Origin: Sabellastarte sp. h YS-2021 | Taxonomy: Eukaryota; Annelida; Polychaeta; Sabellida; Sabellidae | Assembly: GCA_964017235.1 (NCBI GenBank) | Contig: OZ024936.1 | Coordinates: 16,778,496 to 16,842,495, forward strand | Direction: 5' to 3' | DNA length: 64,000 nucleotides | In this document: positions 4,428 through 64,000 of the stretch, one piece after another | How the letters are laid out: every line of letters begins with the position of its first letter | Position numbering within the stretch: the stretch's first letter is position 1 | Made by a program: the position numbers and the translations under genes | The notes under the pieces: generated by a model | Database searches by the model: none | What the model was told of the DNA's origin: nothing | The model's input: only the letters and a program-made list of their open reading frames with translations

Positions 4428-4669
4428 TTTATTTAATTATTTCTTTATTTGGAGTTTTACGTTGCTTTCAACACTGTACAGATCATACCACGATGGGTAG
4501 TTGGAAGGGCAGAGGAAACCAGTACATACAGTTGGCCAAGGTTCTGTACTGTAAACTGCTGACCAACGGGAAGTAACTAGCAGCTTTCCCACTTGAGGTC
4601 ATGCCGGGAAACGAACCCCGGCCTCAGAGGTGGGAGGTGAGAGTGTTACTACTCTGCCACTGTAGCCCC
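4428..4669 (-). mobile_element. SINE-1 copy, full length
   Basis: Reverse orientation from TTTATTTGGAG to CTGCCACTGTAGCCCC. Target-site duplication GACAGTTGKTATAA (one mismatch) at 4414-4427 and 4670-4683. Confidence 0.88.
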
Positions 4670-32920: not shown

Positions 32921-33166
32921 CCCCCTTAGGGGCCAAGATGGCAGAGTGGTAAGACTCTGGCCTCCCACCTCTGAGGCCGGGCTTCGGTTCCCGGCACGGC
33001 CTCAAGTGGGAAAGCTGGTAGTTGCTTGCCGTTGGTCGGCAGTTTACAGTACAGAACCCTAATGAACTGTATGTACTGGTTTCCTCTGCCCTTCCAACTA
33101 CCCGTCGTGATATGACCTGTACAGTGTTGAAAGCGATGTAAAACCCCAAATAAATAAATAAATAAA
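32921..33166 (+). mobile_element. SINE-1 copy, full length
   Basis: GGGGCCAAGATGGCAGAGTG head, CTTCGGTTCCCGGC, body and a five-unit AAAT tail. Flanked by TCTTGAAAA at 32912-32920 and 33167-33175. Confidence 0.9.
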
Positions 33167-33507
33167 TCTTGAAAAAGTATCAGTTTCAAATGGTTATTAA
33201 AACGATGCTATCTCCTGGTACACCTTAGAACAGCTTGCCCATTAAGCCTTACTTGTGCTTGTTTTATGTGTAAATGACTAGGTTTCTATTGATTGAAATC
33301 TTCATTGACAAAAGAGCCACCAATAAATATGCTTTAACTATACAAAGTTAATTCAAGTAAACTTTTGCAAGCTTTTCCCAGTTTTAATGGGTCAAAAGAC
33401 AACTTCATTTCACCCCAGTGCCTAAATATTACCTTAAATCTCGGAAACTGCACTTGAAAATATCTGACTATAATAAATTTGTTTCCGCCACTATTTGAAC
33501 TTCCAGT

Positions 33508-33738
33508 GGCCACAGTGGCAGAGTGGCAACACTCTCACCTCTCACCTCTAAGGCCAGGGTTTGGTTCCCGGCATGGTCTCAAGTGGGAAAGCTGGTAGTT
33601 GCTTGCCATTGGTCAGCAGTTTACAGTACAGAACCCTGATGAACTGTATGTACTGGTTTCCTCTGCCCTTCCACCTAACCGTCGTGATATAACCTGTACA
33701 GTGTTGAAAGCGACATAAAACCCCAAATAAATAAATAA
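33508..33738 (+). mobile_element. SINE-1 copy
   Basis: GGCCACAGTGGCAGAGTGGC head through AAATAAATAA tail; no clear target-site duplication. Confidence 0.85.
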
Positions 33739-40897: not shown

Positions 40898-42564
40898 TCA
40901 TGACAAGTCATGTACAACATAGTAAGCTCTCCAGCCGACTCCACCATCTGGTGGCTCTGTGTACATCTGACCTCTCAGCGGGTCAGAGTAATGGCAGTGG
41001 TAAGACCCACTAGACTGCTTGTAGTTGTAAAACACACAGCCAGGGGTGGAAGTGCACGTCAGTTGGCAGTCTGTTATGGATCTCACTTTTGCTAGAACAA
41101 TGGCCATTTCTATGTAATAATGATCACAGGATACAAGGTGTCCAAGGGCTTTCCGCTTGTTGCCTCCGTTGTGGGAATCTAAAATATGCAGACTGTATAT
41201 ATCACGGGAAAATATTACCAGCACATTTAAGTTTATCATTACAGAATACATATCCATGTTATGAGGGATGTTAAAGATTAATGAATTACTGCTAAAAAGT
41301 CACAAAATGTCTTTTCTAAATTATTATTATTAGTAGTAGTAGTACTAGTGGCAGTAGTAGTTGTAGTGGAAAAAAACCTTGTCAAAGTGTATTTTCAGAT
41401 CCCTATTAAATATACATATATGACAAGGCTGAAAGGGGTTTCGGTCTACTAGCGTGAGCTGCAAAGCCATCAGAGACACAAGTAGTGCGATGAGGTAGTC
41501 ACCCTTCCAAGTACTAACATAACCCATTGCTGCTTAACTTCAGCGATGAGACAGGTACTCGTCATGCTACACCACAATTCATGAAAGCTTGGAGACAAAA
41601 AATAAATAAATAAATAAAATAAACTTGAAAATTGTTCCAACTAACCTTCAGACACCCCTATATCATGATATGTCATGACACCAATGCTCTTGCCCTTGAT
41701 TGAAGCAGGTTCCCAACATTCACCCTCTAATTGTCTTGTGATCAGCCAAGCGAGATTCACATCACAGTCTAATGGATTGCCGCCCAGCAATAACTGTGTG
41801 CTGTAGCCTATCACAGGTACAGTGTGGATGCTGTTGTTTATTAGATTAATTTCGTGAAGATTTTCAAATCTCACTAGATGACCTGCGGGAATCATAAAGA
41901 TGTCGTTATTTGAGAGGTCCAGAGCTTCTAGAGTGGATTTGATGGGCCCACAATCAGGAAACACATGAAGCCTATTTCCACTCAGATCCAAGAACTGTAT
42001 GGTTAAAAAGCCTTCAAAATCATCTGATTTAATAGCCTCAATAGAGTTGGATGAAACTTCAAGTCTGGTCAGAGACTTTGGCAGTATTTTTAATGCTGGG
42101 AAGTGTTCTAGTTTGTTGTTTGATACCTTTAATGTTATAAGCGATGTAGATGGCCCGTATACATCAGGAATAGACGTCAGGAAATTGTGCTTTAAGAGAA
42201 CTTTCTTTAGTTTATGTAAAACATCCAGATTGTCTTTTGGTATCTCAGTGAGTAAGTTATTCATCAGATATAATATCTCTAGGGTGCCTTTGACTGAAGA
42301 GACATTTGGAAATACTGTGAGATAGTTGTCGTTCAAACCCAATATCTGTAAGCTTTGCAGCCCTTCCAAGTCTTCTGACGTCACAATTTGCAGACTGTTA
42401 TTACCTAGAAAGAGGCCTGTAGTATCCAAAGGTATCTCACTTCTGTATAGTGACACATTAGTTATTCCCATACTACTCAGAGTAACTTTTTTAAGCAGTG
42501 ATAAGTTTGTGAAGTAACAGATAAGGATGACATATCTTACTACATACATCATTTTCAATCCCAT
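40898..42564 (-). CDS. Leucine-rich-repeat protein with C-terminal apple/PAN-like module, two exons
   Basis: Exon 1 is complement 42564-41646 and exon 2 complement 41178-40898, joined GAAG|GTTAGT ... TTTTAG|AT in frame, giving 1200 nt and 399 residues. The ATG at 42564 is chosen over the in-frame TTG just upstream; a second Met a few codons later is also possible. The N-terminus (MMYVVRYVILICYF) looks like a signal sequence. Roughly eight leucine-rich repeats follow (for example LQSLQILGLNDNYLTVFP, STLEALDLSNNDIFMIP), ending in a partial LRR C-cap (NPLDCDVNLAWLI). Exon 2 encodes DCQLTC, PGCVFYNYKQ and YHCHYSDP, an apple/PAN-like cysteine pattern, then GWRAYYVVHDLS-stop. No transmembrane helix follows, so a secreted recognition or adhesion protein is plausible (inference). 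LRR-PAN combinations are uncommon to my knowledge. The intron holds TAG-type microsatellite sequence. Confidence 0.82.
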
Positions 42565-43190
42565 CAATGTGACTTGGAAATAAAGTTTATCACAAGTTCA
42601 TCTGATATACACAATCATTGTCTTGACAGTGCCAAGGTACAAAGAAGGAGCAAGTGACCTAATTCTGTTCGGTTTATTTGAGTAAACACAAACACATTCA
42701 TTCTCGGCAATCAATAAATTCCAATACCACAATTCAATTTTTGGTGAGAAAAGTAACACCCTCGAGACAATCAGTATCTTTATACCTTTTTCAGTTCACC
42801 ATTGCAGTAATATTTCTTCTGGAAGCCATAAACTGACTAATGCTATTCTTTTTGCTTTTAATTGTCTTTTTTTTGTTCACCATAATAATACTAAATAAAA
42901 GATGACTGTTTGAAATGACATAATTGTATCAATTGATGTAAATGGTTTACTGAATGACATAGTTTTGGAAAAATAATATATTTTAAGTATTTAGTGTGTC
43001 TGCATTGTCCAATTTGCAGGGGTCTTAACACTCATCAATTCCGGCTTGAATAATCCAACATTTGCTAAAATAGGGTTACAATATTGATATTGTAACAAAA
43101 GAATGTATGCCAAGTATTTATTTAGTGGCCGTAGTTCTGTAAACAAATGTGCCAAAATGTACAGCAGTTCCACTCTCACCAGTTTGTCTT

Positions 43191-43636: not shown

Positions 43637-44589
43637 TTATGGTATAACCACTAATTGTGTACATTTTTAATTCAGACAGAACGGCGTGATCTTGTTGAAA
43701 CAGAGGGTAAATTTGTTTGGGGCTTATAGTTACGAACTAATTTCAAGATTCATAGCGGTGGGATCACAAGGTCTATCTAAAGCCTCTATTACATCACTTC
43801 ATATGTGCACGTACATCCAGGTTGCAGAGAAAAATAAGCTACACATGTGATATTATAAAGGATTTATCAAAGTCGTAATGACTCCACAATTAAAAAACTG
43901 GCATGCAAATTATTTTCTGCATGCATGCAGTATGGCTACAAATGCATACATGTCTCAAGGGAAATTTACAAGAGGCTTGGGCACGTGTATTCACTGTGTT
44001 AGCGTTGCAAGTGCTCCACATACACTTGCAGGGTTTGCACGTGCCGTACAATAAACTCACATGTACTTTGCATCTTTTTTTATCCACTGTGGGGCCTGTA
44101 GCTAGTCACAGACTGTTCTTTGGTATTCAAGTAGTGACACCCTTGTTGGGACAATATACTTTGTTTTCACATGCAAATCTCTACTACCCCACTACCAGGC
44201 TACTGTCATATTTTTACAACAATATCTGTAGTACACTTATGTGTGTATACATGTACAATGGGATGTAAGAGAAGCTTATGTTATTGCAGAATTTATCTCT
44301 ATACTTAAGTTCTCCTGCCCATTTTGATCAGAATTCATCATAGCAGTGCCTTGTGCTATCAATTGGATGGGCCTAAGAATGACCCAAGAACGTGGAACTG
44401 GACTATAAAGGAGTGTTTTGTAGTTGGCAACAGATTGATATGTTTGAACGAAGAATACGAACACTGTAGTATCTTTGGACTACTATAGACATGAAGGAAA
44501 TTTTTATTTTCAAGAGGTTGATGGTTGTAATAATGATTATAAAAATAAAATTTATTTAAAAAAATTGATGATAAGCCATTAACAAGGCT

Positions 44590-44890
44590 CTAATCGTATC
44601 ACTCTCTTTGGGCAAAGTTCGTAACTTGTGGAAGCAAGCCAATGTGATACCATTGCATAAAAAGGAATGTGATCATATTTTGGGCAACTATCATCCAGTT
44701 TCCCTTCTCAGCATTTGGGGTAAAATTTTGGAAAGAATAGTCTTCAAACATGTATATAATCAGTTCAGAGATAACTTCCTAATATCTGTGTTGCAGCCTG
44801 GTTTTGTACCAGACTCTTCTACAATTACTCAACTTTTGAACCTTTATAACAAGTTTTGCACTGCCGTGTCTCAGAATAAAGAAATTCGAA
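44590..44890 (+). pseudogene. Non-LTR retrotransposon reverse transcriptase fragment (N-terminal half of RT domain)
   Basis: The + strand reads KQANVIPLHKKECDHILGNY, HPVSLLSIWGKILERIVFKH and LQPGFVPDSSTITQLLNLYN, the order of conserved RT blocks in jockey/CR1-like LINEs. The frame ends abruptly at QNKEIR where satellite begins, just before the block that would carry the catalytic YxD/FD motif. No 5' ORF1 or endonuclease is attached, so this is a dead fragment. Confidence 0.8.
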
Positions 44891-46240
44891 TTTTATGGCG
44901 ACCTCGAGTATGCCAGCCTAATACAAATTCATTCTCTGACATAAACTGAGTTTCCTGTAAAAATTTCAGCCAGTTTGACCAACTTTAAGGGGTGGTTTGG
45001 GCTGATCTGGCATTTTACCTATCCCTCGCCAACTACACTCCCTGAACCTGCACTTTGGGCTACATATGTATTTCTGAAGGAACACACTACTAAAATTCAT
45101 TTCAGGGGTCACTCCTGTATGAATCAATGTGGTTTTCAACCTTAAATCTACCTTAATTGAGAAGATGTCAGCATTTCTTGATACAGCCATCTGAGGCTGT
45201 ATTTTCGCTTTCCTGGATCACATATAACATATACGACACCACTGGAATGCCAGATGTAATCCTAAAACCTATGAAGTCAGATTTAGTATGTGAAAAGTGA
45301 GTTTTTGTCCGAATTTTAGACTTATAGACCAACATTTGGTACTGGTTTGGACTGATTTACATCTAATTTTGGCTATATTTAGAACAATATTTAGGTGAAA
45401 TATTTCATGATTAGACATGTAATGCTCCAAATGTGTCTAAAATATCCTCATTAATTATTAGAATATGAATGAATTTAAATTTGGGCTTCAGATTAGCAAT
45501 ATTATGATATATTTGACATCTTCCACCTGAGGGGTGACATGGGGCCCTCCCACACCCCGAAAATTGAAATTTTTAATGTGGCCCTCGAGTATGCCAGCCT
45601 AATAGAAATTCATTGTCTGACATAAACTGAGTTTCCTGTAAAAATTTCAGCCAGATTGACCAACTTTAAGGGGTTGTTTGGGCTGATCTGGCATTTTACC
45701 TATCCCTCATCAACTACACTCCCTGAACCTGCACTTTGGGCTACACATGTATTTCTGAAAGAACACACTACTAAACTTCATTTCAGGGGTCACTCCTGTA
45801 TGAATCAATGTGGTTTTCAACCTTGAATCTACCTTAATTGAGAATATATCAGCATTTCCTAATACAGTCATCTGAGGCTGTATTTTCGCTTTCCTGGATC
45901 ACATATGACACCCCTGGTATACCAGATGTAATCCTAAAACCTATGCAGTCAGATTTAGTAGGTGGTAAGCGATTTTAGGCCAAATTTTAGACTTATAGAC
46001 CAATATTTGGTACTGGTTTGGGCTGATTTACATCTATTTTTGGCTATATTTAGAACAATATTTTGGTGAAATAATTTATGGTCAGACATGTAATGTTCCA
46101 AATGCTCCTAAAATATCCTCATTAATTATTAGAATATGAATGAAATTAAATTTGGGCTTCAGATTAGCAATATTATGATATATTTGACATCTTCCACCTG
46201 AGGGGTGACATGGGGCCTTCCCACACCCCGAAAATTGAAA
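44890..46240. repeat. Diverged left-edge satellite units
   Basis: The first two units, about 676 bp apart, carry many private differences: ACTCCTGTATGAATCAATGTGG is kept, but AAGATGTCAGCATTTCTTG and CCCTCATCAAC replace the interior versions. Divergence at an array margin is expected where unequal exchange homogenises less. Confidence 0.8.
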
Positions 46241-46909
46241 TTTTTAATGTGGCCCTCGAGTATGCCAGCCTAATACAAATTCATTCTCTGACATAAACTG
46301 AGTTTCCTGTAAAAATTTCAGCCAGATTGACTAACTTTAAGGGGTGGTTTGGGCTGATCTGGCATTTTACCTATCCCTCGCCAACTACACTCCCTGAACC
46401 TGCACTTCGGGCTACATATGTATTTCTGAAGGAACACACTACTAAAATTCATTTCAGGGGTCACTCCTGTATGAATCAATGTGGTTTTCAACCTTGAATC
46501 TACCTTAATTGAGAATATATCAGCATTTCCTGATACAGCCATCTGAGGCTGTATTTTCGCTTTCCTGGATCACATATGACACCCCTGGTATACCAGATGT
46601 AATCCTAAAACCTATGCAGTCAGATTTAGTAGGTGGCAAGTGATTTTTAGGCCAAATTTTAGACTTATAGACCAATATTTGGTACTGGTTTGGGCTGATT
46701 TACATCTATTTTTGGCTATATTTAGAACAATATTTTGGTGAAATAATTTCTGGTCAGACATGTAATGTTCCAAATGCGCCTAAAATATCTTCATTAATTA
46801 TTAGAATATGAATGAAATTAAATTTGGTCTTCAGATTAGCAATATTATGATATATTTGACATCTTCCACCTGAGGGGTGACATGGGGCCCTCCCACACCC
46901 CGAAAATTG

Positions 46910-49900
46910 GAATTTTTTAATGTGGCCCTCGAGTATGCCAGCCTAATACAAATTCATTCTCTGACATAAACTGAGTTTCCTGTAAAAATTTCAGCCAGAT
47001 TGACCAACTTTAAGGGGTGGTTTGGGCTGATCTGGCATTTTACCTATCCCTCGCCAACTACACTCCCTGAACCTGCACTTTGGGCTACATATGTATTTCT
47101 GAAGGAACACACTACTAAAATTCATTTCAGGGGTCACTCCTGTATGAATCAATGTGGTTTTCAACCTTGAATCTACCTTAATTGAGAATATATCAGCATT
47201 TCCTGATACAGCCATCTGAGGCTGTATTTTCGCTTTCCTGGTTCACATATGACACAAATGACACCCCTGGAATACCAGATGTAATCCTAAAACCTATGCA
47301 GTCAGATTTAGTAGGAGGCAAGTGATTTTTAGGCCAAATTTTAGACTTATAGACCAACATTTGGTACTGGTTTGGGCTGATTTACATCTATTTTTGGCTA
47401 TATTTAGAACAATATTTTGGTGAAATAATTTCTGGTCAGACATGTAATGTTCCAAATGCGCCTAAAATATCCTCATTAATTATTAGAATATGAATGAAAT
47501 TAAATTTGGGCTTCAGATTATCAATATTATGATACATTTGACATCTTCCACCTGAGGGGTGACATGGGGCCCTCCCACACCCCGAAAATTGAAATTTTTA
47601 ATGTGGCCCTCGAGTATGCCAGCCTAATACAAATTCATTCTCTGACATAAACTGAGTTTCCTGTAAAAATTTCAGCCAGATTGACCAACTTTAAGGGGTG
47701 GTTTGGGCTGATCTGGCATTTTACCTATCCCTCGCCAACTACACTCCCTGAACCTGCACTTTGGGCTACATATGTATTTCTGAAGGAACACACTACTAAA
47801 ATTCATTTCAGGGGTCACTCCTGTATGAATCAATGTGGTTTTCAACCTTGAATCTACCTTAATTGAGAATATATCAACATTTCCTGATACAGCCATCTGA
47901 GGCTGTATTTTCGCTTTCCTGGATCACATATGACACATATGACACCCCTGGTATACCAGATGTAATCCTAAAACCTATGCAGTCAGATTTAGTAGGTGGG
48001 AAGTGATTTTTAAGCCAAATTTTAGACTTATAGACCAATATTTGGTACTGCGTTGGGCTGATTTATATCTATTTTTGGCTATATTTAGAACAATATTTTG
48101 GTGAAATAATTTCTGGTCAGACATGAAATGTTCCAAATGCGCCTAAAATATCCTCATTGATTATTAGAATATGAATGAAATTAAATTTGGGCTTCAGATT
48201 AGCAATATTATGATATATTTGATATCTTCCACCTGAGGGGTGACATGGGGCCCTCCCACACCCCGAAAATTGAAATTTTTAATGTGGCCCTCGAGTATGC
48301 CAGCCTAATACAAATTCATTCTCTGACATAAACTGAGTTTCCTGTAAAAATTTCAGCCAGATTGACCAACTTTAAGGGGTGGTTTTGGCTGATCTGGCAT
48401 TTTACCTATCCCTCGCCAACTACACTCCCTGAACCTGCACTTTGGGCTACATATGTATTTCTGAAGGAACACACTACTAAAATTCATTTCAGGGGTCACT
48501 CCTGTATGAATCAATGTGGTTTTCAACCTTGAATCTACCTTAATTGAGAATATATCAGCATTTCCTGATACAGCCATCTGAGGCTGTATTTTCGCTTTCC
48601 TGGATCACATATGACACATATGACACCCCTGGTATACCAGATGTAATCCTAAAACCTATGCAGTCAGATTTAGTAGGTGGCAAGTGATTTTTAAGCCAAA
48701 TTTTAGACTTATAGACCAATATTTGGTACTGGTTTGGGCTGATTTACATCTATTTTTGGCTATATTTAGAACAATATTTTGGTGAAATAATTTCTGGTCA
48801 GACATGTAATGTTCCAAATGCGCCTAAAATATCTTCATTAATTATTAGAATATGAATGAAATTAAATTTGGTCTTCAGATTAGCAATATTATGATATATT
48901 TGACATCTTCCACCTGAGGGGTGACATGGGGCCCTCCCACACCCCGAAAATTGGAATTTTTTAATGTGGCCCTCGAGTATGCCAGCCTAATACAAATTCA
49001 TTCTCTGACATAAACTGAGTTTCCTGTAAAAATTTCAGCCAGATTGACCAACTTTAAGGGGTGGTTTGGGCTGATCTGGCATTTTACCTATCCCTCGCCA
49101 ACTACACTCCCTGAACTTGCACTTTGGGCTACATATGTATTTCTGAAGGAACACACTACTAAAATTCATTTCAGGGGTCACTCCTGTATGAATCAATGTG
49201 GTTTTCAACCTTGAATCTACCTTAATTGAGAATATATCAGCATTTCCTGATACAGCCATCTGAGGCTGTATTTTCGCTTTCCTGGTTCACATATGACACA
49301 AATGACACCCCTGGAATACCAGATGTAATCCTAAAACCTATGCAGTCAGATTTAGTAGGTGGCAAGTGATTTTTAGGCCAAATTTTAGACTTATAGACCA
49401 ACATTTGGTACTGGTTTGGGCTGATTTACATCTATTTTTGGCTATATTTAGAACAATATTTTGGTGAAATAATTTCTGGTCAGACATGTAATGTTCCAAA
49501 TGCACCTAAAATATCCTCATTAATTATTAGAATATGAATGAAATTAAATTTGGGCTTCAGATTATCAATATTATGATACATTTGACATCTTCCACCTGAG
49601 GGGTGACATGGGGCCCTCCCACACCCCGAAAATTGAAATTTTTAATGTGGCCCTCGAGTATGCCAGCCTAATACAAATTCATTCTCTGATATAAACTGAG
49701 TTTCCTGTAAAAATTTCAGCCAGATTGACCAACTTTAAGGGGTGGTTTGGGCTGATCTGGCATTTTACCTATCCCTCGCCAACTACACTCCCTGAACCTG
49801 CACTTTGGGCTACATATGTATTTCTGAAGGAACACACTACTAAAATTCATTTCAGGGGTCACTCCTGTATGAATCAATGTGGTTTTCAACCTTGAATCTA

Positions 49901-50998
49901 CCTTAATTGAGAATATATCAACATTTCCTGATACAGCCATCTGAGGCTGTATTTTCGCTTTCCTGGATCACATATGACACATATGACACCCCTGGTATAC
50001 CAGATGTAATCCTAAAACCTATGCAGTCAGATTTAGTAGGTGGCAAGTGATTTTTAAGCCAAATTTTAGACTTATAGACCAATATTTGGTACTGCGTTGG
50101 GCTGATTTATATCTATTTTTGGCTATATTTAGAACAATATTTTGGTGAAATAATTTCTGGTCAGACATGAAATGTTCCAAATGCGCCTAAAATATCCTCA
50201 TTGATTATTAGAATATGAATGAAATTAAATTTGGGCTTCAGATTAGCAATATTATGATATATTTGATATCTTCCACCTGAGGGGTGACATGGGGCCCTCC
50301 CACACCCCGAAAATTGAAATTTTTAATGTGGCCCTCGAGTATGCCAGCCTAATACAAATTCATTCTCTGACATAAACTGAGTTTCCTGTAAAAATTTCAG
50401 CCAGATTGACCAACTTTAAGGGGTGGTTTTGGCTGATCTGGCATTTTACCTATCCCTCGCCAACTACACTCCCTGAACCTGCACTTTGGGCTACATATGT
50501 ATTTCTGAAGGAACACACTACTAAAATTCATTTCAGGGGTCACTCCTGTATGAATCAATGTGGTTTTCAACCTTGAATCTACCTTAATTGAGAATATATC
50601 AGCATTTCCTGATACAGCCATCTGAGGCTGTATTTTCGCTTTCCTGGATCACATATGACACATATGACACCCCTGGTATACCAGATGTAATCCTAAAACC
50701 TATGCAGTCAGATTTAGTAGGTGGCAAGTGATTTTTAAGCCAAATTTTAGACTTATAGACCAATATTTGGTACTGGTTTGGGCTGATTTATATCTATTTT
50801 TGGCTATATTTAGAACAATATTTTGGTGAAATAATTTCTGGTCAGACATGTAATGTTCCAAATGCGCCTAAAATATCTTCATTAATTATTAGAATATGAA
50901 TGAAATTAAATTTGGTCTTCAGATTAGCAATATTATGATATATTTGACATCTTCCACCTGAGGGGTGACATGGGGCCCTCCCACACCCCGAAAATTGG
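46910..50998. repeat. Higher-order repeat 1: 2044-bp trimer (A2-A1-A1) in two copies
   Basis: A2-type junctions (TTGGAATTTTTT) occur at 46910, 48954 and 50998, exactly 2044 bp apart each time. Private variants recur at the same place in both copies, such as TACTGCGTTGGGC near 48048 and 50092, and the CTTGCAC variant at the third unit. This shows block duplication rather than monomer-by-monomer drift. Confidence 0.9.
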
Positions 50999-53900
50999 AA
51001 TTTTTTAATGTGGCCCTCGAGTATGCCAGCCTAATACAAATTCATTCTCTGACATAAACTGAGTTTCCTGTAAAAATTTCAGCCAGATTGACCAACTTTA
51101 AGGGGTGGTTTGGGCTGATCTGGCATTTTACCTATCCCTCGCCAACTACACTCCCTGAACTTGCACTTTGGGCTACATATGTATTTCTGAAGGAACACAC
51201 TACTAAAATTCATTTCAGGGGTCACTCCTGTATGAATCAATGTGGTTTTCAACCTTGAATCTACTTTAATTGAGAATATATCAGCATTTCCTGATACAGC
51301 CATCTGAGGCTGTATTTTCTCTTTCCTGGTTCACATATGACACAAATGACACCCCTGGTATACCAGATGTAATCCTAAAACCTATGCAGTCAGATTTAGT
51401 AGGTGGCAAGTGATTTTTAGGCCAAATTTTAGACTTATAGACCAACATTTGGCACTGGTTTGGGCTGATTTACATATATTTTTGGCTATATTTAGAACAA
51501 TATTTTGGTGAAATAATTTCTGGTCAGACATGTAATGTTCCAAATGCGCCTAAAATATCCTCATTAATTATTAGAATATGAATGAAATTAAATTTGGGCT
51601 TCAGAGTAGCAATATTATGATATATTTGACATCTTCCCCCTGTGGGGTGACATGGGCAGCCACACACCCCGAAAATTGAATTTTTTAATGCGGGCCTCGA
51701 TTATGCCAGCCTAATACAAATTCATTCTCTGACATAAACTGAGTTTCCTGTAAAAATTTCAGCCAGATTGACCAACTTTAAGGGGTGGTTTTGGCTGATC
51801 TGGCATTTTACCTATCCCTCGCCAACTACACTCCCTGAACCTGCACTTTGGGCTACATATGTATTTCTGAAGGAACACACTACTAAAATTCATTTCAGGG
51901 GACACTCCTGTATGAATCAATGTGGTTTTCAACCTTGAATCTACTTTAATTGAGAATATATCAGCATTTCCTGATACAGCCATCTGAGGCTGTATTTTCG
52001 CTTTCCTGGTTCACATATGACACAAATGACACCCCTGGTATACCAGATGTAATCCTAAAACCTATGCAGTCAGATTTAGTAGGTGGCAAGTGATTTTTAG
52101 GCCAAATTTTAGACTTATGGACCAACATTTGGCACTGGTTTGGGCTGATTTACATCTATTTTTGGCTATATTTAGAACAATATTTTGGTGAAATAATTTC
52201 TGGTCAGACATGTAATGTTCCAAATGCGCCTAAAATATCCTCATTAATTATTAGAATATGAATGAAATTAAATTTGGGCTTCAGAGTAGCAATATTATGA
52301 TATATTTGACATCTTCCCCCTGTGGGGTGACATGGGCAGCCACACACCCCGAAAATTGAATTTTTTAATGCGGGCCTCGATTATGCCAGCCTAATACAAA
52401 TTCATTCTCTGACATAAACTGAGTTTCCTGTAAAAATTTCAGCCAGATTGACCAACTTTAAGGGGTGGTTTTGGCTGATCTGGCATTTTACCTATCCCTC
52501 GCCAACTACACTCCCTGAACCTGCACTTTGGGCTACATATGTATATCTGAAGGAACACACTACTAAAATTCATTTCAGGGGTCACTCCTGTATGAATCAA
52601 TGTGGTTTTCAACCTTGAATCTACCTTAATTGAGAATATATCAGCATTTCCTGATACAGCCATCTGAGGCTGTATTTTCGCTTTCCTGGATCACATATGC
52701 CACATATGACACCCCTGGTATACCAGATGTAATCCTAAAACCTATGCAGTCAGATTTAGTAGGTGGCAAGTGATTTTTAGGCAAAATTTTAGACTTATAG
52801 ACCAATATTTGGTACTGGTTTGGGCTGATTTACATCTATTTTTGGCTATATTTAGAACAATATTTTGGTGAAATAATTTCTGGTCAGACATGTAATGTTC
52901 CAAATGCGCCTAAAATATCCTCATTAATTATTAGAATATGAATGAAATTAAATTTGGGCTTCAGAGTAGCAATATTATGATATATTTGACATCTTCCACC
53001 TGTGGGGTAACATGGTCAGCCACACACCAAGAAAATTGAAATTTTTAATGCGGGCCTCGAGTATGCCAGCCTAATACAAATTCATTCTCTGACATAAACT
53101 GAGTTTCCTGTAAAAATTTCAGCCAGATTGACCAACTTTAAGGGGTGGTTTTGGCTGATCTGGCATTTTAGCTATCCCTCGCCAACTACACTCCCTGAAC
53201 CTGCACTTTGGGCTACATATGTATTTCTGAAGGAACACACTACTAAAATTCATTTCAGGGGTCACTCCTGTATGAATCAATGTGGTTTTCAACCTTGAAT
53301 CTCCCTTAATTGAGAATATATCAACATTTCCTGATACAGCCATCTGAGGCTGTATTTTCGCTTTCCTGGATCACATATGACACATATGACACCCCTGGTA
53401 TACCAGATGTAATCCTAAAACCTATGCAGTCAGATTTAGTAGGTGGCAAGTGATTTTTAAGCCAAATTTTAGACTTATAGACCAATATTTGGTACTGGTT
53501 TGGGCTGATTTACATCTATTTTTGGCTATATTTAGAACAATATTTTGGTGAAATAATTTTTGGTCAGACATGTAATGTTCCAAATGCGCCTAAAATATCT
53601 TCATTAATTATTAGAATATGAATGAAATTAAATTTGGTCTTCAGATTAGCAATATTATGATATATTTGACATCTTCCACCTGAGGGGTGACATGGGGCCC
53701 TCCCACACCCCGAAAATTGGAATTTTTTAATGTGGCCCTCGAGTATGCCAGCCTAATACAAATTCATTCTCTGACATAAACTGAGTTTCCTGTAAAAATT
53801 TCAGCCAGATTGACCAACTTTAAGGGGTGGTTTGGGCTGATCTGGCATTTTACCTATCCCTCGCCAACTACACTCCCTGAACTTGCACTTTGGGCTACAT

Positions 53901-56442
53901 ATGTATTTCTGAAGGAACACACTACTAAAATTCATTTCAGGGGTCACTCCTGTATGAATCAATGTGGTTTTCAACCTTGAATCTACTTTAATTGAGAATA
54001 TATCAGCATTTCCTGATACAGCCATCTGAGGCTGTATTTTCGCTTTCCTGGTTCACATATGACACAAATGACACCCCTGGTATACCAGATGTAATCCTAA
54101 AACCTATGCAGTCAGATTTAGTAGGTGGCAAGTGATTTTTAGGCCAAATTTTAGACTTATAGACCAACATTTGGCACTGGTTTGGGCTGATTTACATATA
54201 TTTTTGGCTATATTTAGAACAATATTTTGGTGAAATAATTTCTGGTCAGACATGTAATGTTCCAAATGCGCCTAAAATATCCTCATTAATTATTAGAATA
54301 TGAATGAAATTAAATTTGGGCTTCAGAGTAGCAATATTATGATATATTTGACATCTTCCCCCTGTGGGGTGACATGGGCAGCCACACACCCCGAAAATTG
54401 AATTTTTTAATGCGGGCCTCGATTATGCCAGCCTAATACAAATTCATTCTCTGACATAAACTGAGTTTCCTGTAAAAATTTCAGCCAGATTGACCAACTT
54501 TAAGGGGTGGTTTTGGCTGATCTGGCATTTTACCTATCCCTCGCCAACTACACTCCCTGAACCTGCACTTTGGGCTACATATGTATTTCTGAAGGAACAC
54601 ACTACTAAAATTCATTTCAGGGGTCACTCCTGTATGAATCAATGTGGTTTTCAACCTTGAATCTACTTTAATTGAGAATATATCAGCATTTCCTGATACA
54701 GCCATCTGAGGCTGTATTTTCGCTTTCCTGGTTCACATATGACACAAATGACACCCCTGGTATACCAGATGTAATCCTAAAACCTATGCAGTCAGATTTA
54801 GTAGGTGGCAAGTGATTTTTAGGCCAAATTTTAGACTTATGGACCAACATTTGGCACTGGTTTGGGCTGATTTACATCTATTTTTGGCTATATTTAGAAC
54901 AATATTTTGGTGAAATAATTTCTGGTCAGACATGTAATGTTCCAAATGCGCCTAAAATATCCTCATTAATTATTAGAATATGAATGAAATTAAATTTGGG
55001 CTTCAGAGTAGCAATATTATGATATATTTGACATCTTCCCCCTGTGGGGTGACATGGGCAGCCACACACCCCGAAAATTGAATTTTTTAATGCGGGCCTC
55101 GATTATGCCAGCCTAATACAAATTCATTCTCTGACATAAACTGAGTTTCCTGTAAAAATTTCAGCCAGATTGACCAACTTTAAGGGGTGGTTTTGGCTGA
55201 TCTGGCATTTTACCTATCCCTCGCCAACTACACTCCCTGAACCTGCACTTTGGGCTACATATGTATATCTGAAGGAACACACTACTAAAATTCATTTCAG
55301 GGGTCACTCCTGTATGAATCAATGTGGTTTTCAACCTTGAATCTACCTTAATTGAGAATATATCAGCATTTCCTGATACAGCCATCTGAGGCTGTATTTT
55401 CGCTTTCCTGGATCACATATGACACATATGACACCCCTGGTATACCAGATGTAATCCTAAAACCTATGCAGTCAGATTTAGTAGGTGGCAAGTGATTTTT
55501 AGGCCAAATTTTAGACTTATAGACCAATATTTGGTACTGGTTTGGGCTGATTTACATCTATTTTTGGCTATATTTAGAACAATATTTTGGTGAAATAATT
55601 TCTGGTCAGACATGTAATGTTCCAAATGCGCCTAAAATATCCTCATTAATTATTAGAATATGAATGAAATTAAATTTGGGCTTCAGAGTAGCAATATTAT
55701 GATATATTTGACATCTTCCACCTGTGGGGTAACATGGTCAGCCACACACCAAGAAAATTGAAATTTTTAATGCGGGCCTCGAGTATGCCAGCCTAATACA
55801 AATTCATTCTCTGACATAAACTGAGTTTCCTGTAAAAATTTCAGCCAGATTGACCAACTTTAAGGGGTGGTTTTGGCTGATCTGGCATTTTACCTATCCC
55901 TCGCCAACTACACTCCCTGAACCTGCACTTTGGGCTACATATGTATTTCTGAAGGAACACACTACTAAAATTCATTTCAGGGGTCACTCCTGTATGAATC
56001 AATGTGGTTTTCAACCTTGAATCTCCCTTAATTGAGAATATATCAACATTTCCTGATACAGCCATCTGAGGCTGTATTTTCGCTTTCCTGGATCACATAT
56101 GACACATATGACACCCCTGGTATACCAGATGTAATCCTAAAACCTATGCAGTCAGATTTAGTAGGTGGCAAGTGATTTTTAAGCCAAATTTTAGACTTAT
56201 AGACCAATATTTGGTACTGGTTTGGGCTGATTTACATCTATTTTTGGCTATATTTAGAACAATATTTTGGTGAAATAATTTTTGGTCAGACATGTAATGT
56301 TCCAAATGCGCCTAAAATATCTTCATTAATTATTAGAATATGAATGAAATTAAATTTGGTCTTCAGATTAGCAATATTATGATATATTTGACATCTTCCA
56401 CCTGAGGGGTGACATGGGGCCCTCCCACACCCCGAAAATTGG
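50998..56442. repeat. Higher-order repeat 2: 2722-bp tetramer (A2-B-B-C) in two copies
   Basis: A2 junctions at 50998, 53720 and 56442 are exactly 2722 bp apart. Within each block the junction order is B, B, C. Shared private variants include TATATCTGAAGG near 52542 and 55262, the phrase GGACCAACATTTGGCAC near 52120 and 54841, and AATCTCCCTTAA near 53300 and 56022. Confidence 0.9.
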
Positions 56443-58488
56443 AATTTTTTAATGTGGCCCTCGAGTATGCCAGCCTAATACAAATTCATTCTCTGACATA
56501 AACTGAGTTTCCTGTAAAAATTTCAGCCAGATTGACCAACTTTAAGGGGTGGTTTTGGCTGATCTGGCATTTTACCTATCCCTCGCCAACTACACTCCCT
56601 GAACTTGCACTTTGGGCTACATATGTATTTCTGAAGGAACACACTACTAAAATTCATTTCAGGGGTCACTCCTGTATGAATCAATGTGGTTTTCAACCTT
56701 GAATCTCCCTTAATTGAGAATATATCAACATTTCCTGATACAGCCATCTGAGGCTGTATTTTCGCTTTCCTGGATCACATATGACACATATGACACCCCT
56801 GGTATACCAGATGTAATCCTAAAACCTATGCAGTCAGATTTAGTAGGTGGCAAGTGATTTTTAAGCCAAATTTTAGACTTATAGACCAATATTTGGTACT
56901 GGTTTGGGCTGATTTACATCTATTTTTGGCTATATTTAGAACAATATTTTGGTGAAATAATTTTTGGTCAGACATGTAATGTTCCAAATGCGCCTAAAAT
57001 ATCTTCATTAATTATTAGAATATGAATGAAATTAAATTTGGTCTTCAGATTAGCAATATTATGATATATTTGACATCTTCCACCTGAGGGGTGACATGGG
57101 GCCCTCCCACACCCCGAAAATTGGAATTTTTTAATGTGGCCCTCGAGTATGCCAGCCTAATACAAATTCATTCTCTGACATAAACTGAGTTTCCTGTAAA
57201 AATTTCAGCCAGATTGACCAACTTTAAGGGGTGGTTTTGGCTGATCTGGCATTTTACCTATCCCTCGCCAACTACACTCCCTGAACTTGCACTTTGGGCT
57301 ACATATGTATTTCTGAAGGAACACACTACTAAAATTCATTTCAGGGGTCACTCCTGTATGAATCAATGTGGTTTTCAACCTTGAATCTCCCTTAATTGAG
57401 AATATATCAACATTTCCTGATACAGCCATCTGAGGCTGTATTTTCGCTTTCCTGGATCACATATGACACATATGACACCCCTGGTATACCAGATGTAATC
57501 CTAAAACCTATGCAGTCAGATTTAGTAGGTGGCAAGTGATTTTTAAGCCAAATTTTAGACTTATAGACCAATATTTGGTACTGGTTTGGGCTGATTTACA
57601 TCTATTTTTGGCTATATTTAGAACAATATTTTGGTGAAATAATTTTTGGTCAGACATGTAATGTTCCAAATGCGCCTAAAATATCTTCATTAATTATTAG
57701 AATATGAATGAAATTAAATTTGGTCTTCAGATTAGCAATATTATGATATATTTGACATCTTCCACCTGAGGGGTGACATGGGGCCCTCCCACACCCCGAA
57801 AATTGGAATTTTTTAATGTGGCCCTCGAGTATGCCAGCCTAATACAAATTCATTCTCTGACATAAACTGAGTTTCCTGTAAAAATTTCAGCCAGATTGAC
57901 CAACTTTAAGGGGTGGTTTTGGCTGATCTGGCATTTTACCTATCCCTCGCCAACTACACTCCCTGAACTTGCACTTTGGGCTACATATGTATTTCTGAAG
58001 GAACACACTACTAAAATTCATTTCAGGGGTCACTCCTGTATGAATCAATGTGGTTTTCAACCTTGAATCTCCCTTAATTGAGAATATATCAACATTTCCT
58101 GATACAGCCATCTGAGGCTGTATTTTCGCTTTCCTGGATCACATATGACACATATGACACCCCTGGTATACCAGATGTAATCCTAAAACCTATGCAGTCA
58201 GATTTAGTAGGTGGCAAGTGATTTTTAAGCCAAATTTTAGACTTATAGACCAATATTTGGTACTGGTTTGGGCTGATTTACATCTATTTTTGGCTATATT
58301 TAGAACAATATTTTGGTGAAATAATTTCTGGTCAGACATGTAATGTTCCAAATGCGCCTAAAATATCTTCATTAATTATTAGAATATGAATGAAATTAAA
58401 TTTGGTCTTCAGATTAGCAATATTATGATATATTTGACATCTTCCACCTGAGGGGTGACATGGGGCCCTCCCACACCCCGAAAATTGG
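56442..58488. repeat. Run of near-identical 682-bp monomers (A2 type) in three copies
   Basis: A2 junctions at 56442, 57124, 57806 and 58488 are each 682 bp apart. All three units combine AATCTCCCTTAA, GAACTTGCAC and GGTTTTGGCTGATC, a combination seen nowhere else in the array, so they arose by recent single-unit amplification of a recombinant monomer. Confidence 0.88.
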
Positions 58489-61400
58489 AATTTTTTAATG
58501 TGGCCCTCGAGTATGCCAGCCTAATACAAATTCATTCTCTGACATAAACTGAGTTTCCTGTAAAAATTTCAGCCAGATTGACCAACTTTAAGGGGTGGTT
58601 TGGGCTGATCTGGCATTTTACCTATCCCTCGCCAACTACACTCCCTGAACTTGCACTTTGGGCTACATATGTATTTCTGAAGGAACACACTACTAAAATT
58701 CATTTCAGGGGTCACTCCTGTATGAATCAATGTGGTTTTCAACCTTGAAACTACTTTAATTGAGAATATATCAGCATTTCCTGATACAGCCATCTGAGGC
58801 TGTATTTTCGCTTTCCTGGTTCACATATGACACAAATGACACCCCTGGTATACCAGATGTAATCCTAAAACCTATGCAGTCAGATTTAGTAGGTGGCAAG
58901 TGATTTTTAGGCCAAATTTTAGACTTATAGACCAACATTTGGCACTGGTTTGGGCTGATTTCCATATATTTTTGGCTATATTTAGAACAATATTTTGGTG
59001 AAATAATTTCTGGTCAGACATGTAATGTTCCAAATGCGCCTAAAATATCCTCATTAATTATTAGAATATGAATGAAATTAAATTTGGGCTTCAGAGTAGC
59101 AATATTATGATATATTTGACATCTTCCCCCTGTGGGGTGACATGGGCAGCCACACACCCCGAAAATTGAATTTTTTAATGCGGGCCTCGATTATGCCAGC
59201 CTAATACAAATTCATTCTCTGACATAAACTGAGTTTCCTGTAAAAATTTCAGCCAGATTGACCAACTTTAAGGGGTGGTTTTGGCTGATCTGGCATTTTA
59301 CCTATCCCTCGCCAACTACACTCCCTGAACCTGCACTTTGGGCTACATATGTATTTCTGAAGGAACACACTACTAAAATTCATTTCAGGGGTCACTCCTG
59401 TATGAATCAATGTGGTTTTCAACCTTGAATCTACTTTAATTGAGAATATATCAGCATTTCCTGATACAGCCATCTGAGGCTGTATTTTCGCTTTCCTGGT
59501 TCACATATGACACAAATGACACCCCTGGTATACCAGATGTAATCCTAAAACCTATGCAGTCAGATTTAGTAGGTGGCAAGTGATTTTTAGGCCGAATTTT
59601 AGACTTATGGACCAACATTTGGCACTGGTTTGGGCTGATTTACATCTATTTTTGGCTATATTTAGAACAATATTTTGGTGAAATAATTTCTGGTCAGACA
59701 TGTAATGTTCCAAATGCGCCTAAAATATCCTCATTAATTATTAGAATATGAATGAAATTAAATTTGGGCTTCAGAGTAGCAATATTATGATATATTTGAC
59801 ATCTTCCCCCTGTGGGGTGACATGGGCAGCCACACACCCCGAAAATTGAATTTTTTAATGCGGGCCTCGATTATGCCAGCCTAATACAAATTCATTCTCT
59901 GACATAAACTGAGTTTCCTGTAAAAATTTCAGCCAGATTGACCAACTTTAAGGGGTGGTTTTGGCTGATCTGGCATTTTACCTATCCCTCGCCAACTACA
60001 CTCCCTGAACCTGCACTTTGGGCTACATATGTATATCTGAAGGAACACACTACTAAAATTCATTTCAGGGGTCACTCCTGTATGAATCAATGTGGTTTTC
60101 AACCTTGAATCTACCTTAATTGAGAATATATCAGCATTTCCTGATACAGCCATCTGAGGCTGTATTTTCGCTTTCCTGGATCACATATGCCACATATGAC
60201 ACCCCTGGTATACCAGATGTAATCCTAAAACCTATGCAGTCAGATTTAGTAGGTGGCAAGTGATTTTTAGGCCAAATTTTAGACTTATAGACCAATATTT
60301 GGTACTGGTTTGGGCTGATTTACATCTATTTTTGGCTATATTTAGAACAGTATTTTGGTGAAATAATTTCTGGTCAGACATGTAATGTTCCAAATGCGCC
60401 TAAAATATCCTCATTAATTATTAGAATATGAATGAAATTAAATTTGGGCTTCAGAGTAGCAATATTATGATATATTTGACATCTTCCACCTGTGGGGTAA
60501 CATGGTCAGCCACACACCAAGAAAATTGAAATTTTTAATGCGGGCCTCGAGTATGCCAGCCTAATACAAATTCATTCTCTGACATAAACTGAGTTTCCTG
60601 TAAAAATTTCAGCCAGATTGACCAACTTTAAGGGGTGGTTTTGGCTGATCTGGCATTTTACCTATCCCTCGCCAACTACACTCCCTGAACCTGCACTTTG
60701 GGCTACATATGTATTTCTGAAGGAACACACTACTAAAATTCATTTCAGGGGTCACTCCTGTATGAATCAATGTGGTTTTCAACCTTGAATCTACTTTAAT
60801 TGAGAATATATCAGCATTTCCTGATACAGCCATCTGAGGCTGTATTTTCGCTTTCCTGGTTCACATATGACACAAATGACACCCCTGGTATACCAGATGT
60901 AATCCTAAAACCTATGCAGTCAGATTTAGTAGGTGGCAAGTGATTTTTAGGCCAAATTTTAGACTTATAGACCAACATTTGGCACTGGTTTGGGCTGATT
61001 TACATCTATTTTTGGCTATATTTAGAAAAATATTTTGGTGAAATAATTTCTGGTCAGACATGTAATGTTCCAAATGCGCCTAAAATATCCTCATTAATTA
61101 TTAGAATATGAATGAAATTAAATTTGGGCTTCAGAGTAGCAATATTATGATATATTTGACATCTTCCACCTGTGGGGTGACATGGGCAGCCACACACCCC
61201 GAAAATTGAATTTTTTAATGCGGGCCTCGATTATGCCAGCCTAATACAAATTCATTCTCTGACATAAACTGAGTTTCCTGTAAAAATTTCAGCCAGATTG
61301 ACCAACTTTAAGGGGTGGTTTGGGCTGATCTGGCATTTTACCTATCCCTCGCCAACTACACTCCCTGAACCTGCACTTCGGGCTACATATGTATTTCTGA

Positions 61401-64000
61401 AGGAACACACTACTAAAATTCATTTCAGGGGTCACTCCTGTATGAATCAATGTGGTTTTCAACCTTGAATCTACCTTAATTGAGAATATATCAGCATTTT
61501 CTGATACAGCCATCTGAGGCTGTATTTTCGCTTTCCTGGATCACATATGACACCCCTGGTATACCAGATGTAATCCTAAAACCTATGCAGTCAGATTTAG
61601 TAGGTGGCAAGTGATTTTTAGGCCAAATTTTAGACTTATAGACCAACATTTTGTACTGGTTTGGGCTGATTTACATCTATTTTTGGCTATATTTAGAACA
61701 ATATTTTAGTGAAATAATTTCTGGTCAGACATGTAATGTTCCAAATGCGCCTAAAATATCCTCATTAATTATTAGAATATGAATGAAATTAAATTTGGGC
61801 TTCAGATTAGCAATATTATGATATATTTGACATCTTCCACCTGAGGGGTGACATGGGGCCCTCCCACACCCCGAAAATTGAAATTTTTAATGTGGCCCTC
61901 GAGTATGCCAGCCTAATACAAATTCATTCTCTGACAAAAACTGAGTTTCCTGTAAAAATTTCAGCCAGATTGACCAACTTTAAGGGGTGGTTTGGGCTGA
62001 TCTGGCATTTTACCTATCCCTCGCCAAATACACTCCCTGAACCTGCACTTTGGGCTACATATGTATTTCTGAAGGAACACACTACTAAAATTCATTTCAG
62101 GGGTCACTCCTGTATGAATCAATGTGGTTTTCAACGTTGAATCTACCTTAATTGAGAATATATCAGCATTTCCTGATACAGCCATCTGAGGCTTTAATTT
62201 CGCTTTCCTGGATCACATATGACACATATGACACCCCTGGTATACCAGATGTAATCCTAAAACCTATGCAGTCAGATTTAGTAGGTGGCAAGTGATTTTT
62301 AGGCCAAATTTTAGACTTATAGACCAACATTTGGCACTGGTTTGGGCTGATTTACATCTATTTTTGGCTATATTTAGAACAATATTTTGGTGAAATAATT
62401 TCTGGTCAGACATGTAATGTTCCAAATGCGCCTAAAATATCCTCATTAATTATTAGAATATGAATGAAATTAAATTTGGGCTTCAGAGTAGCAATATTAT
62501 GATATATTTGACATCTTCCCCCTGTGGGGTGACATGGGCAGCCACACACCCCGAAAATTGAATTTTTTAATGCGGGCCTCGATTATGCCAGCCTAATACA
62601 AATTCATTCTCTGACATAAACTGAGTTTCCTGTAAAAATTTCAGCCAGATTGACCAACTTTAAGGGGTGGTTTTGGCTGATCTGGCATTTTACCTATCCC
62701 TCGCCAACTACACTCCCTGAACCTGCACTTTGGGCTACATATGTATTTCTGAAGGAACACACTACTAAAATTCATTTCAGGGGTCACTCCTGTATGAATC
62801 AATGTGGTTTTCAACCTTGAATCTACTTTAATTGAGAATATATCAGCATTTCCTGATACAGCCATCTGAGGCTGTATTTTCGCTTTCCTGGTTCACATAT
62901 GACACAAATGACACCCCTGGTATACCAGATGTAATCCTAAAACCTATGCAGTCAGATTTAGTAGGTGGCAAGTGATTTTTAGGCCAAATTTTAGACTTAT
63001 GGACCAACATTTGGCACTGGTTTGGGCTGATTTACATCTATTTTTGGCTATATTTAGAACAATATTTTGGTGAAATAATTTCTGGTCAGACATGTAATGT
63101 TCCAAATGCGCCTAAAATATCCTCATTAATTATTAGAATATGAATGAAATTAAATTTGGGCTTCAGAGTAGCAATATTATGATACATTTGACATCTTCCC
63201 CCTGTGGGGTGACATGGGCAGCCACACACCCCGAAAATTGAATTTTTTAATGCGGGCCTCGATTATGCCAGCCTAATACAAATTCATTCTCTGACATAAA
63301 CTGAGTTTCCTGTAAAAATTTGAGCCAGATTGACCAACTTTAAGGGGTGGTTTTGGCTGATCTGGCATTTTACCTATCCCTCGCCAACTACACTCCCTGA
63401 ACCTGCACTTTGGGCTACATATGTATTTCTGAAGGAACACACTACTAAAATTCATTTCAGGGGTCACTCCTGTATGAATCAATGTGGTTTTCAACCTTGA
63501 ATCTACCTTAATTGAGAATATATCAGCATTTCCTGATACAGCCATCTGAGGCTGTATTTTCGCTTTCCTGGATCACATATGACACATATGACACCCCTGG
63601 TATACCAGATGTAATCCTAAAACCTATGCAGTCAGATTTAGTAGGTGGCAAGTGATTTTTAGGCCAAATTTTAGACTTATAGACCAATATTTGGTACTGG
63701 TTTGGGCTGATTTACATCTATTTTTGGCTATATTTAGAACAATATTTTGGTGAAATAATTTCTGGTCAGACATGTAATGTTCCAAATGCGCCTAAAATAT
63801 CCTCATTAATTATTAGAATATGAATGAAATTAAATTTGGGCTTCAGAGTAGCAATATTATGATATATTTGACATCTTCCACCTGTGGGGTAACATGGTCA
63901 GCCACACACCAAGAAAATTGAAATTTTTAATGCGGGCCTCGAGTATGCCAGCCTAATACAAATTCATTCTCTGACATAAACTGAGTTTCCTGTAAAAATT

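What the first reader, a model, noticed from the sequence alone, without database searches (positions are those of the whole stretch)
44890..64000. Satellite array with nested higher-order repeats of different multiplicity
Junction types read, left to right: A2-A1-A1 twice (exact 2044-bp period), A2-B-B-C twice (exact 2722-bp period), A2 three times (682 bp), then A2-B-B-C once more followed by B, A1, B, B, C. Trimer, tetramer and monomer regimes side by side, sharing the same A2 starter, capture several rounds of unequal exchange in one stretch. Alpha-satellite-like higher-order structure is well described in primates but much less so in invertebrates.
Basis: partly seen in the sequence, partly recalled or inferred. 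Interest (0 to 1): 0.75.

Follow-up and report, generated by a model that had tools for sequence, protein, structure and literature searches.

The report
Bivalve satellite DNA with nested repeats
A 680-base DNA unit repeated about 137 times in a row in what is probably a clam- or mussel-like animal shows three- and four-unit super-repeats made by ordinary repeat-exchange, a clear but not unprecedented example of how satellite DNA evolves.

Summary
The periods are exact in length, not in sequence (6 and 7 differences). The window shows only the left fifth of an array of about 101 kb, in which 137 monomers start; lag-4 similarity dominates it. The three-fold monomer is an A2/C chimera, as out-of-register exchange would give. 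A SINE-like insertion was copied into four monomers.

A 40-base piece of the unit occurs about 11,600 times in the genome. The arrays sampled fall into four sequence types among five arrays, lie on both strands, and in the capped listings occur on few large contigs, three places on this one. LRR-like ORFs lie 2.2-2.3 kb from each array end. This argues against a universal centromere satellite. COX1 suggests a mollusc, probably a bivalve. Best reading: ordinary satellite turnover by unequal exchange or conversion. HORs, also beside simple arrays, are known in beetles and nematodes. New member of a known kind.

The parts
44575..44896 (+). LINE reverse-transcriptase fragment cut off by the array; its similarity to another LINE copy ends at about 44,896, overlapping the first satellite bases at 44,882 (short imperfect shared stretch)
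   Evidence: RVT_1 E 1.5e-4, below the family cut-off; 65 matching stretches of this flank in the genome, itself included, 40 of 98 candidates scored; a LINE copy on C7 aligns to 44,865-44,896 here, and blastn of its next 1 kb finds no continuation in the 58 kb right of the array
44883..45250 (+). partial first monomer (monomer positions 311-679)
   Evidence: blastn 95.1%
45251..46593 (+). two edge monomers, A1 class, with no close relative in the array
   Evidence: nearest relatives 35 and 20 differences away (median of the array 1); class
46594..48637 (+). trimer HOR copy 1 (A2-A1-A1), 2,044 bp
48638..50681 (+). trimer HOR copy 2, 2,044 bp; differs from copy 1 by 2, 3, 1
50682..53403 (+). 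tetramer HOR copy 1 (A2-B-B-C), 2,722 bp
53404..56125 (+). tetramer HOR copy 2; differs from copy 1 by 3, 1, 1, 2
56126..58171 (+). three identical 682-bp monomers, each a chimera: left part as the A2 monomer at 53,404, right part as the C monomer at 55,446
   Evidence: 0 differences among them; best single parent 6 differences, best two-parent mosaic 1
58172..60893 (+). tetramer HOR copy 3 (A2-B-B-C); its C monomer at 60,214 has a B-type right end
   Evidence: 2, 1, 2, 6 differences from copy 2; best single parent 6, two-parent mosaic 1
60894..64000 (+). irregular stretch B, A1, B, B, C (last monomer cut by the window end); the array continues to C14:16,924,281

Best explanation
This is the left edge of an interstitial satellite array of 680-bp monomers in the genome of what is probably a bivalve mollusc. 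SHOWN: monomers are organised in local higher-order units of mostly three or four monomers; near-identical relatives lie mostly three or four monomers apart; some monomers are two-parent chimeras; a SINE-like insertion is present in four monomers at one place of the unit; this array has its own sequence type. INFERRED: repeated out-of-register exchange between sister chromatids (unequal crossing over), or conversion or break-induced copying along the array, duplicates blocks of 1-4 monomers. Each round fixes a different block length locally, so trimer, tetramer and monomer stretches sit side by side, while edge copies escape and diverge. The array most likely has no dedicated cellular function at this site.
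For: Lag-4 monomer distance 14.4 against 19.4 in shuffles (0 of 5,000), block runs at lags 2, 3, 4; nearest relative at a median of 4 monomers against 21.5 in shuffles, at 3 or 4 monomers for 73 of 136; 13 consecutive lag-4 pairs with 6 differences in total; A2/C chimera in three identical copies and a C/B chimera at 60,214; SINE-like insertion with 16-bp target duplication in 4 monomers at the right end; the two left edge monomers have no close relative; a 33-base type found 134 times in the genome, 127 of them in this array and 0 in the sampled stretches of four other arrays; array consensuses 91.9-99.1% alike; the sampled part of the C2 array has its strongest period at lag 3, p=0.001.
Against: No reads were available, so collapse or false duplication in the assembly is untested; three identical 682-bp monomers are where an assembler could err. 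Edge divergence is seen only on the left: the last monomer's high value is inflated by the insertion and the inverted piece that it contains, and by distance to consensus the second monomer (24) is no worse than one in mid-array (24). Two of the five arrays sampled (C20, C613) are 99.1% alike, so homogenisation is not wholly array by array. C20 (9 monomers) and C14:1.2 Mb (10) show no significant period. Exchange, conversion and break-induced replication cannot be told apart from one haplotype. Function at this site was not tested.
Confidence: 0.82

Rival explanations
1. The array is a functional centromere or part of a universal (peri)centromeric satellite with HORs, working like alpha satellite.
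For: HOR organisation; about 11,600 copies of a 40-mer, roughly 0.44% of the genome (my arithmetic); marks spanning 1.43 Mb on C18 (with inside it) could be a centromere-sized block there.
Against: Three separate places on C14, on both strands; LRR-like ORFs 2.3 and 2.2 kb from the two array ends; exact-copy listings begin at C2 and pass from C2 to C14, with nothing on C1 and C3-C13 if the capped list is in contig order, as it appears (a one-base variant copy does lie on C6); no CENP-B-box-like match in the window.
Confidence: 0.07
2. The block order is partly an assembly artefact.
For: Near-identical repeats are hard to assemble; three monomers are identical; no reads could be checked.
Against: Blocks are told apart by many shared variants; multi-monomer blocks recur along 101 kb with coherent variants; both flanks are non-satellite sequence on one 99.7-Mb contig.
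Confidence: 0.06
3. The tandem unit is the inside of a mobile element (Helitron/Helentron-like, as in oysters) that carried the arrays to many sites.
For: In oysters euchromatic satellite repeats are closely linked with Helitron-type elements (PMC12692304; PMC8268682; passages of both); arrays here lie on both strands at scattered sites.
Against: An array of 101 kb; the one array read across both ends shows no element ends that I recognised: left edge at a LINE fragment, right edge an inverted 208-bp piece of the monomer; no Rfam match and no Pfam match above cut-off in four short ORFs of the unit; three array ends lie at different monomer positions: 311, 201, 279.
Confidence: 0.05

Closest known systems
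Alpha satellite HORs of primates (PMC5615363, passages read)
   Same: Head-to-tail multi-monomer units; copies of a unit more alike than the monomers in it; monomeric stretches beside HORs.
   Different: 680-bp instead of about 170-bp monomers, monomers within a unit already about 96-99% alike against 70-90% there, small and irregular units, interstitial site, no CENP-B-box-like match in the window. No sequence comparison with alpha satellite was run.
Root-knot nematode satellites with simple and HOR arrays (PMC3694981, passages read)
   Same: Simple and HOR arrays of one family coexist, with shuffling of monomers between them.
   Different: There HORs include neighbouring monomers as little as 32% alike, and a CENP-B-box-like motif is reported; neither is seen here.
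Bivalve satellites: oyster satellitome (PMC8268682), scallop Ac4p1 of about 726 bp (PMC5874043); passages of both read
   Same: Probably the same class of animals; scattered over the genome; long monomers are known (CgiSat04 2,077 bp, Ac4p1 about 726 bp).
   Different: In the oyster the longest arrays of the satellites in the passage seen had 9 to 48 monomers, and many are tied to mobile elements; here one array has 137 monomers with HORs. HOR formation is discussed for the scallop satellite but not shown in the passages seen.

Membership tests
Satellite DNA | Long head-to-tail non-coding arrays, abundant in the genome | tested here: met
   137 monomer starts in 101 kb; 11,598 copies of a 40-mer at 2 or fewer mismatches, reversed control 0; ORFs of a two-monomer stretch at most 83 aa, listed from 60 aa, no Pfam match above cut-off in four of them
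Higher-order repeat (HOR) array | Multi-monomer units whose corresponding monomers are more alike than neighbouring monomers | tested here: met
   Counterparts in the paired trimers and tetramers 1-3 differences, neighbours 12-28 except the two B monomers (6-8); the third tetramer copy is less regular (up to 8); permutation tests
Alpha satellite | About 170-bp monomer | tested here: not met
   680-bp monomer
Alpha satellite | CENP-B box in part of the monomers | tested here: not met
   0 matches in the window (about 19 of the 101 kb of the array) for two forms of the box, recalled from memory, with up to 3 and 1 mismatches; 0.16 and 1.48 expected by chance
Centromeric satellite | Present at each chromosome's centromere, CenH3-bound | tested here: inconclusive
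   Scattered; three places on C14; capped listings show few large contigs; CenH3 not testable
Helitron/Helentron-borne repeat | Array inside element ends | tested here: inconclusive
   No such ends recognised by eye at the one array read across both ends; no motif search was run; other arrays were not read across both ends

The most novel reading that the evidence does not exclude
HORs form freely in interstitial, gene-flanked satellite arrays that are probably not centromeric, at multiplicities that differ between arrays of one family in one genome. Higher-order structure would then be a by-product of local exchange rather than a sign of centromere function, and this array, with a datable Ngaro-like insert, a copied SINE-like marker and an A2/C chimera, would be a readable record of the steps.
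Probability: 0.5. Interest if true: 0.4.

Novelty: new member of a known kind. Interest (0 to 1): 0.3.

Why it matters
It is a clean assembled case in a little-studied group in which block duplications, chimeras and inserted markers can be put in order. It helps to separate HOR formation from centromere function. The principle (unequal exchange makes and remakes HORs) is textbook.

Tried and rejected
Half-monomer origin (680 = 2 x 340): a 46-bp stretch is alike at 34 of 46 places between the halves; its local score exceeds all 300 shuffles (32 against at most 29), and 2 of 300 shuffles reach the global score, but 2 of 33 other rotations of the second half score higher: inconclusive, not claimed. 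Conserved protein-binding box: the longest stretch without differences between five array consensuses is 55 bp (positions 427-481), p=0.075, and two of the five arrays were found with a pattern inside it: not claimed. Ribozyme or RNA family: none in Rfam for about four monomers at E up to 1 or for the window at gathering scores; one monomer folds better than 20 shuffles on both strands (z -1.9 and -3.8): not pursued. Simple insertion of the array into the LINE: the LINE's next 1 kb is not found on the other side within 58 kb: not supported. HOR in other arrays: significant only in C2 (lag 3, p=0.001; 32 monomers), not in C20 (lag 3, p=0.13; 9), C14:1.2 Mb (10) or C613 (11); all are short samples. 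Species: not identified; mitochondrial COX1 read with code 5 points to a mollusc, and 'bivalve' is my inference from recalled features of such sequences. Rows dropped: 1 of 137 monomers (the one holding the Ngaro-like insert); incomplete or over-long monomers (190 kept). One search was meant as a rare-variant search, but the ambiguity letter I chose included the common base, so it became a count of this array's own type. In print: one search for satellite DNA + 680 bp + bivalve gave 0 papers; that does not show it is unpublished.

Full report
Where it is. The window lies at C14:16,778,496-16,842,495 of a 1.786-Gb genome in 647 contigs. A COX1 gene on contig C647 reads openly with the invertebrate mitochondrial code; I take the animal to be a mollusc, probably a bivalve (inference; the species was not identified).

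The observation. The array starts at about 44,883 and fills the rest of the window with + strand monomers of 671-682 bp. Whole-monomer distances confirm the blocks: the trimer 46,594-48,637 recurs at 48,638-50,681 with 2, 3 and 1 differences; the tetramer 50,682-53,403 recurs at 53,404-56,125 with 3, 1, 1 and 2, and at 58,172-60,893 less exactly (2, 1, 2, 6 from the second copy); three monomers at 56,126-58,171 are identical. Random order of the 27 complete monomers gives both runs together in 0 of 20,000 shuffles; the weaker test on mean lag distance in the window alone does not reach significance (p 0.059 and 0.087).

The whole array. I fetched 140 kb to the right. The array runs to 145,786 in extended window coordinates, about 101 kb, with 137 monomers that start at position 1. 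Of these, 136 were compared; the one split by an insert was dropped. Lag 4 is the strongest period (mean 14.4 against 19.4 differences in shuffles, 0 of 5,000). A core from about 97 to 108.6 kb repeats a four-monomer unit with 6 differences over 13 successive comparisons. One lag-2 run, further lag-3 runs and a lag-4 run occur further right. The nearest relative of a monomer lies a median of 4 monomers away, against 21.5 in shuffles.

How it was made. The identical triplet at 56,126-58,171 fits one parent with 6 differences but a two-parent mosaic (left A2, right C) with 1; the C monomer at 60,214 likewise carries a B-type right end (6 against 1). These are products expected of out-of-register exchange or conversion. 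Near the right end a 100-bp piece with a tRNA-like stretch (by eye), flanked by a 16-bp duplication of the satellite, is present in four monomers; one insertion, then copied with the array, is the simplest account. The two left edge monomers have no close relative in the array (35 and 20 differences to the nearest, against a median of 1), as theory predicts for edges (recalled). By distance to consensus only the first stands out (48); the second (24) is matched by one in mid-array. The last monomer's value of 45 is inflated by the insertion and by the inverted end piece, so the right edge is no evidence.

Surroundings. The left edge cuts a LINE reverse-transcriptase fragment; similarity to another LINE copy ends within about 15 bases of the first satellite bases. 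The right edge is a 208-bp inverted piece of the monomer. LRR-type ORFs on the minus strand lie 2.3 kb left (Pfam LRR) and 2.2 kb right of the array and are 45% identical, so the array sits between two paralogous gene-like ORFs. Their expression is untested.

Elsewhere in the genome. A 40-mer of the unit occurs 11,598 times at up to 2 mismatches (0 for the reversed control), about 7.9 Mb or 0.44% of the genome by my arithmetic; a 38-mer from another part occurs exactly 9,942 times. Searches and rare-variant patterns show places at C2:103.9-104.0, C6:138.5 (one copy), C14:1.2, 8.7-9.1 and 16.8-16.9, C18:63.9-65.3, C20:16.0-16.2 and 20.8 Mb, and on C344, C506, C517, C551, C613. These are samples: listings stop at 100, and continuity between marks was not checked. 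Exact-copy listings begin at C2 and, pass from there to C14, which suggests no exact copies on C1 and C3-C13 if the list is in contig order. Five array consensuses are 91.9-99.1% alike; C20 and C613 are nearly one type, so four types among five arrays. A 33-base type of this array occurs 134 times in the genome: 127 in this array, none in the sampled stretches of the four others, and at least 5 at C14:9.0 Mb. The sampled part of the C2 array has its strongest period at lag 3 (p=0.001); C20, C14:1.2 Mb and C613 show no significant period, and C613 is nearly uniform (32, 9, 10 and 11 monomers).

Compared with what is known. HORs in beetles (usually dimeric) and complex HORs in insects are reviewed in PMC5615363 (passages); nematode satellites with simple and HOR arrays in PMC3694981 (passages); HOR formation is discussed for a scallop satellite in PMC5874043 (passages); oyster satellites are scattered and often tied to Helitron-like elements (PMC8268682; PMC12692304; passages); a golden-mussel satellite paper, PMC12818792, does not mention HORs by the terms I looked for. 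This array works like other HOR satellites and meets their definition. It is not alpha satellite (unit length; no CENP-B-box-like match in the window), and a centromere role is unlikely here but not excluded for larger blocks such as that on C18. Verdict: true, well-preserved, ordinary in kind.

Noticed in passing
C14:16,864,226-16,871,068 (extended window 85,731-92,573; L011 1,926-8,768): A 6.8-kb tyrosine-recombinase retrotransposon inside the array: ORFs with reverse-transcriptase and phage-integrase-type domains (RNase H-like match below cut-off) and split direct repeats (A 202 bp, B 508 bp, both 100% identical), the layout given for Ngaro-like elements in PMC9210276 (passages). Identical repeats suggest a recent insertion (inference).
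   Followed up: partly
extended window 138,531; 141,369; 143,488; 144,965 (monomer starts): Four monomers share a 100-bp SINE-like insertion with a tRNA-like stretch (by eye) and a 16-bp target duplication, copied along with the array.
   Followed up: partly
41,641-42,597 (-) and extended window 148,029-148,979 (-): Paralogous leucine-rich-repeat ORFs (45% identical) on both sides of the array; a PAN-domain ORF at 40,898-41,299 (-).
   Followed up: partly
extended window 193,573-198,099 (-): Long ORFs that look like a non-LTR retrotransposon, named by eye from the ORF list; a LINE reverse-transcriptase frame matches within it at 28% identity.
   Followed up: no
2,617-2,846; 4,430-4,669; 12,450-12,687; 14,541-14,776; 32,929-33,167; 33,508-33,735: A dispersed repeat of about 230 bp; these six copies are 87-92% like one copy in the right flank, and weaker copies are present in both flanks.
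   Followed up: no
C613:63,001-71,000 (L055): A nearly uniform array of the same satellite (mean 0.7 differences per monomer pair among 11), a monomeric contrast to the HOR array.
   Followed up: partly
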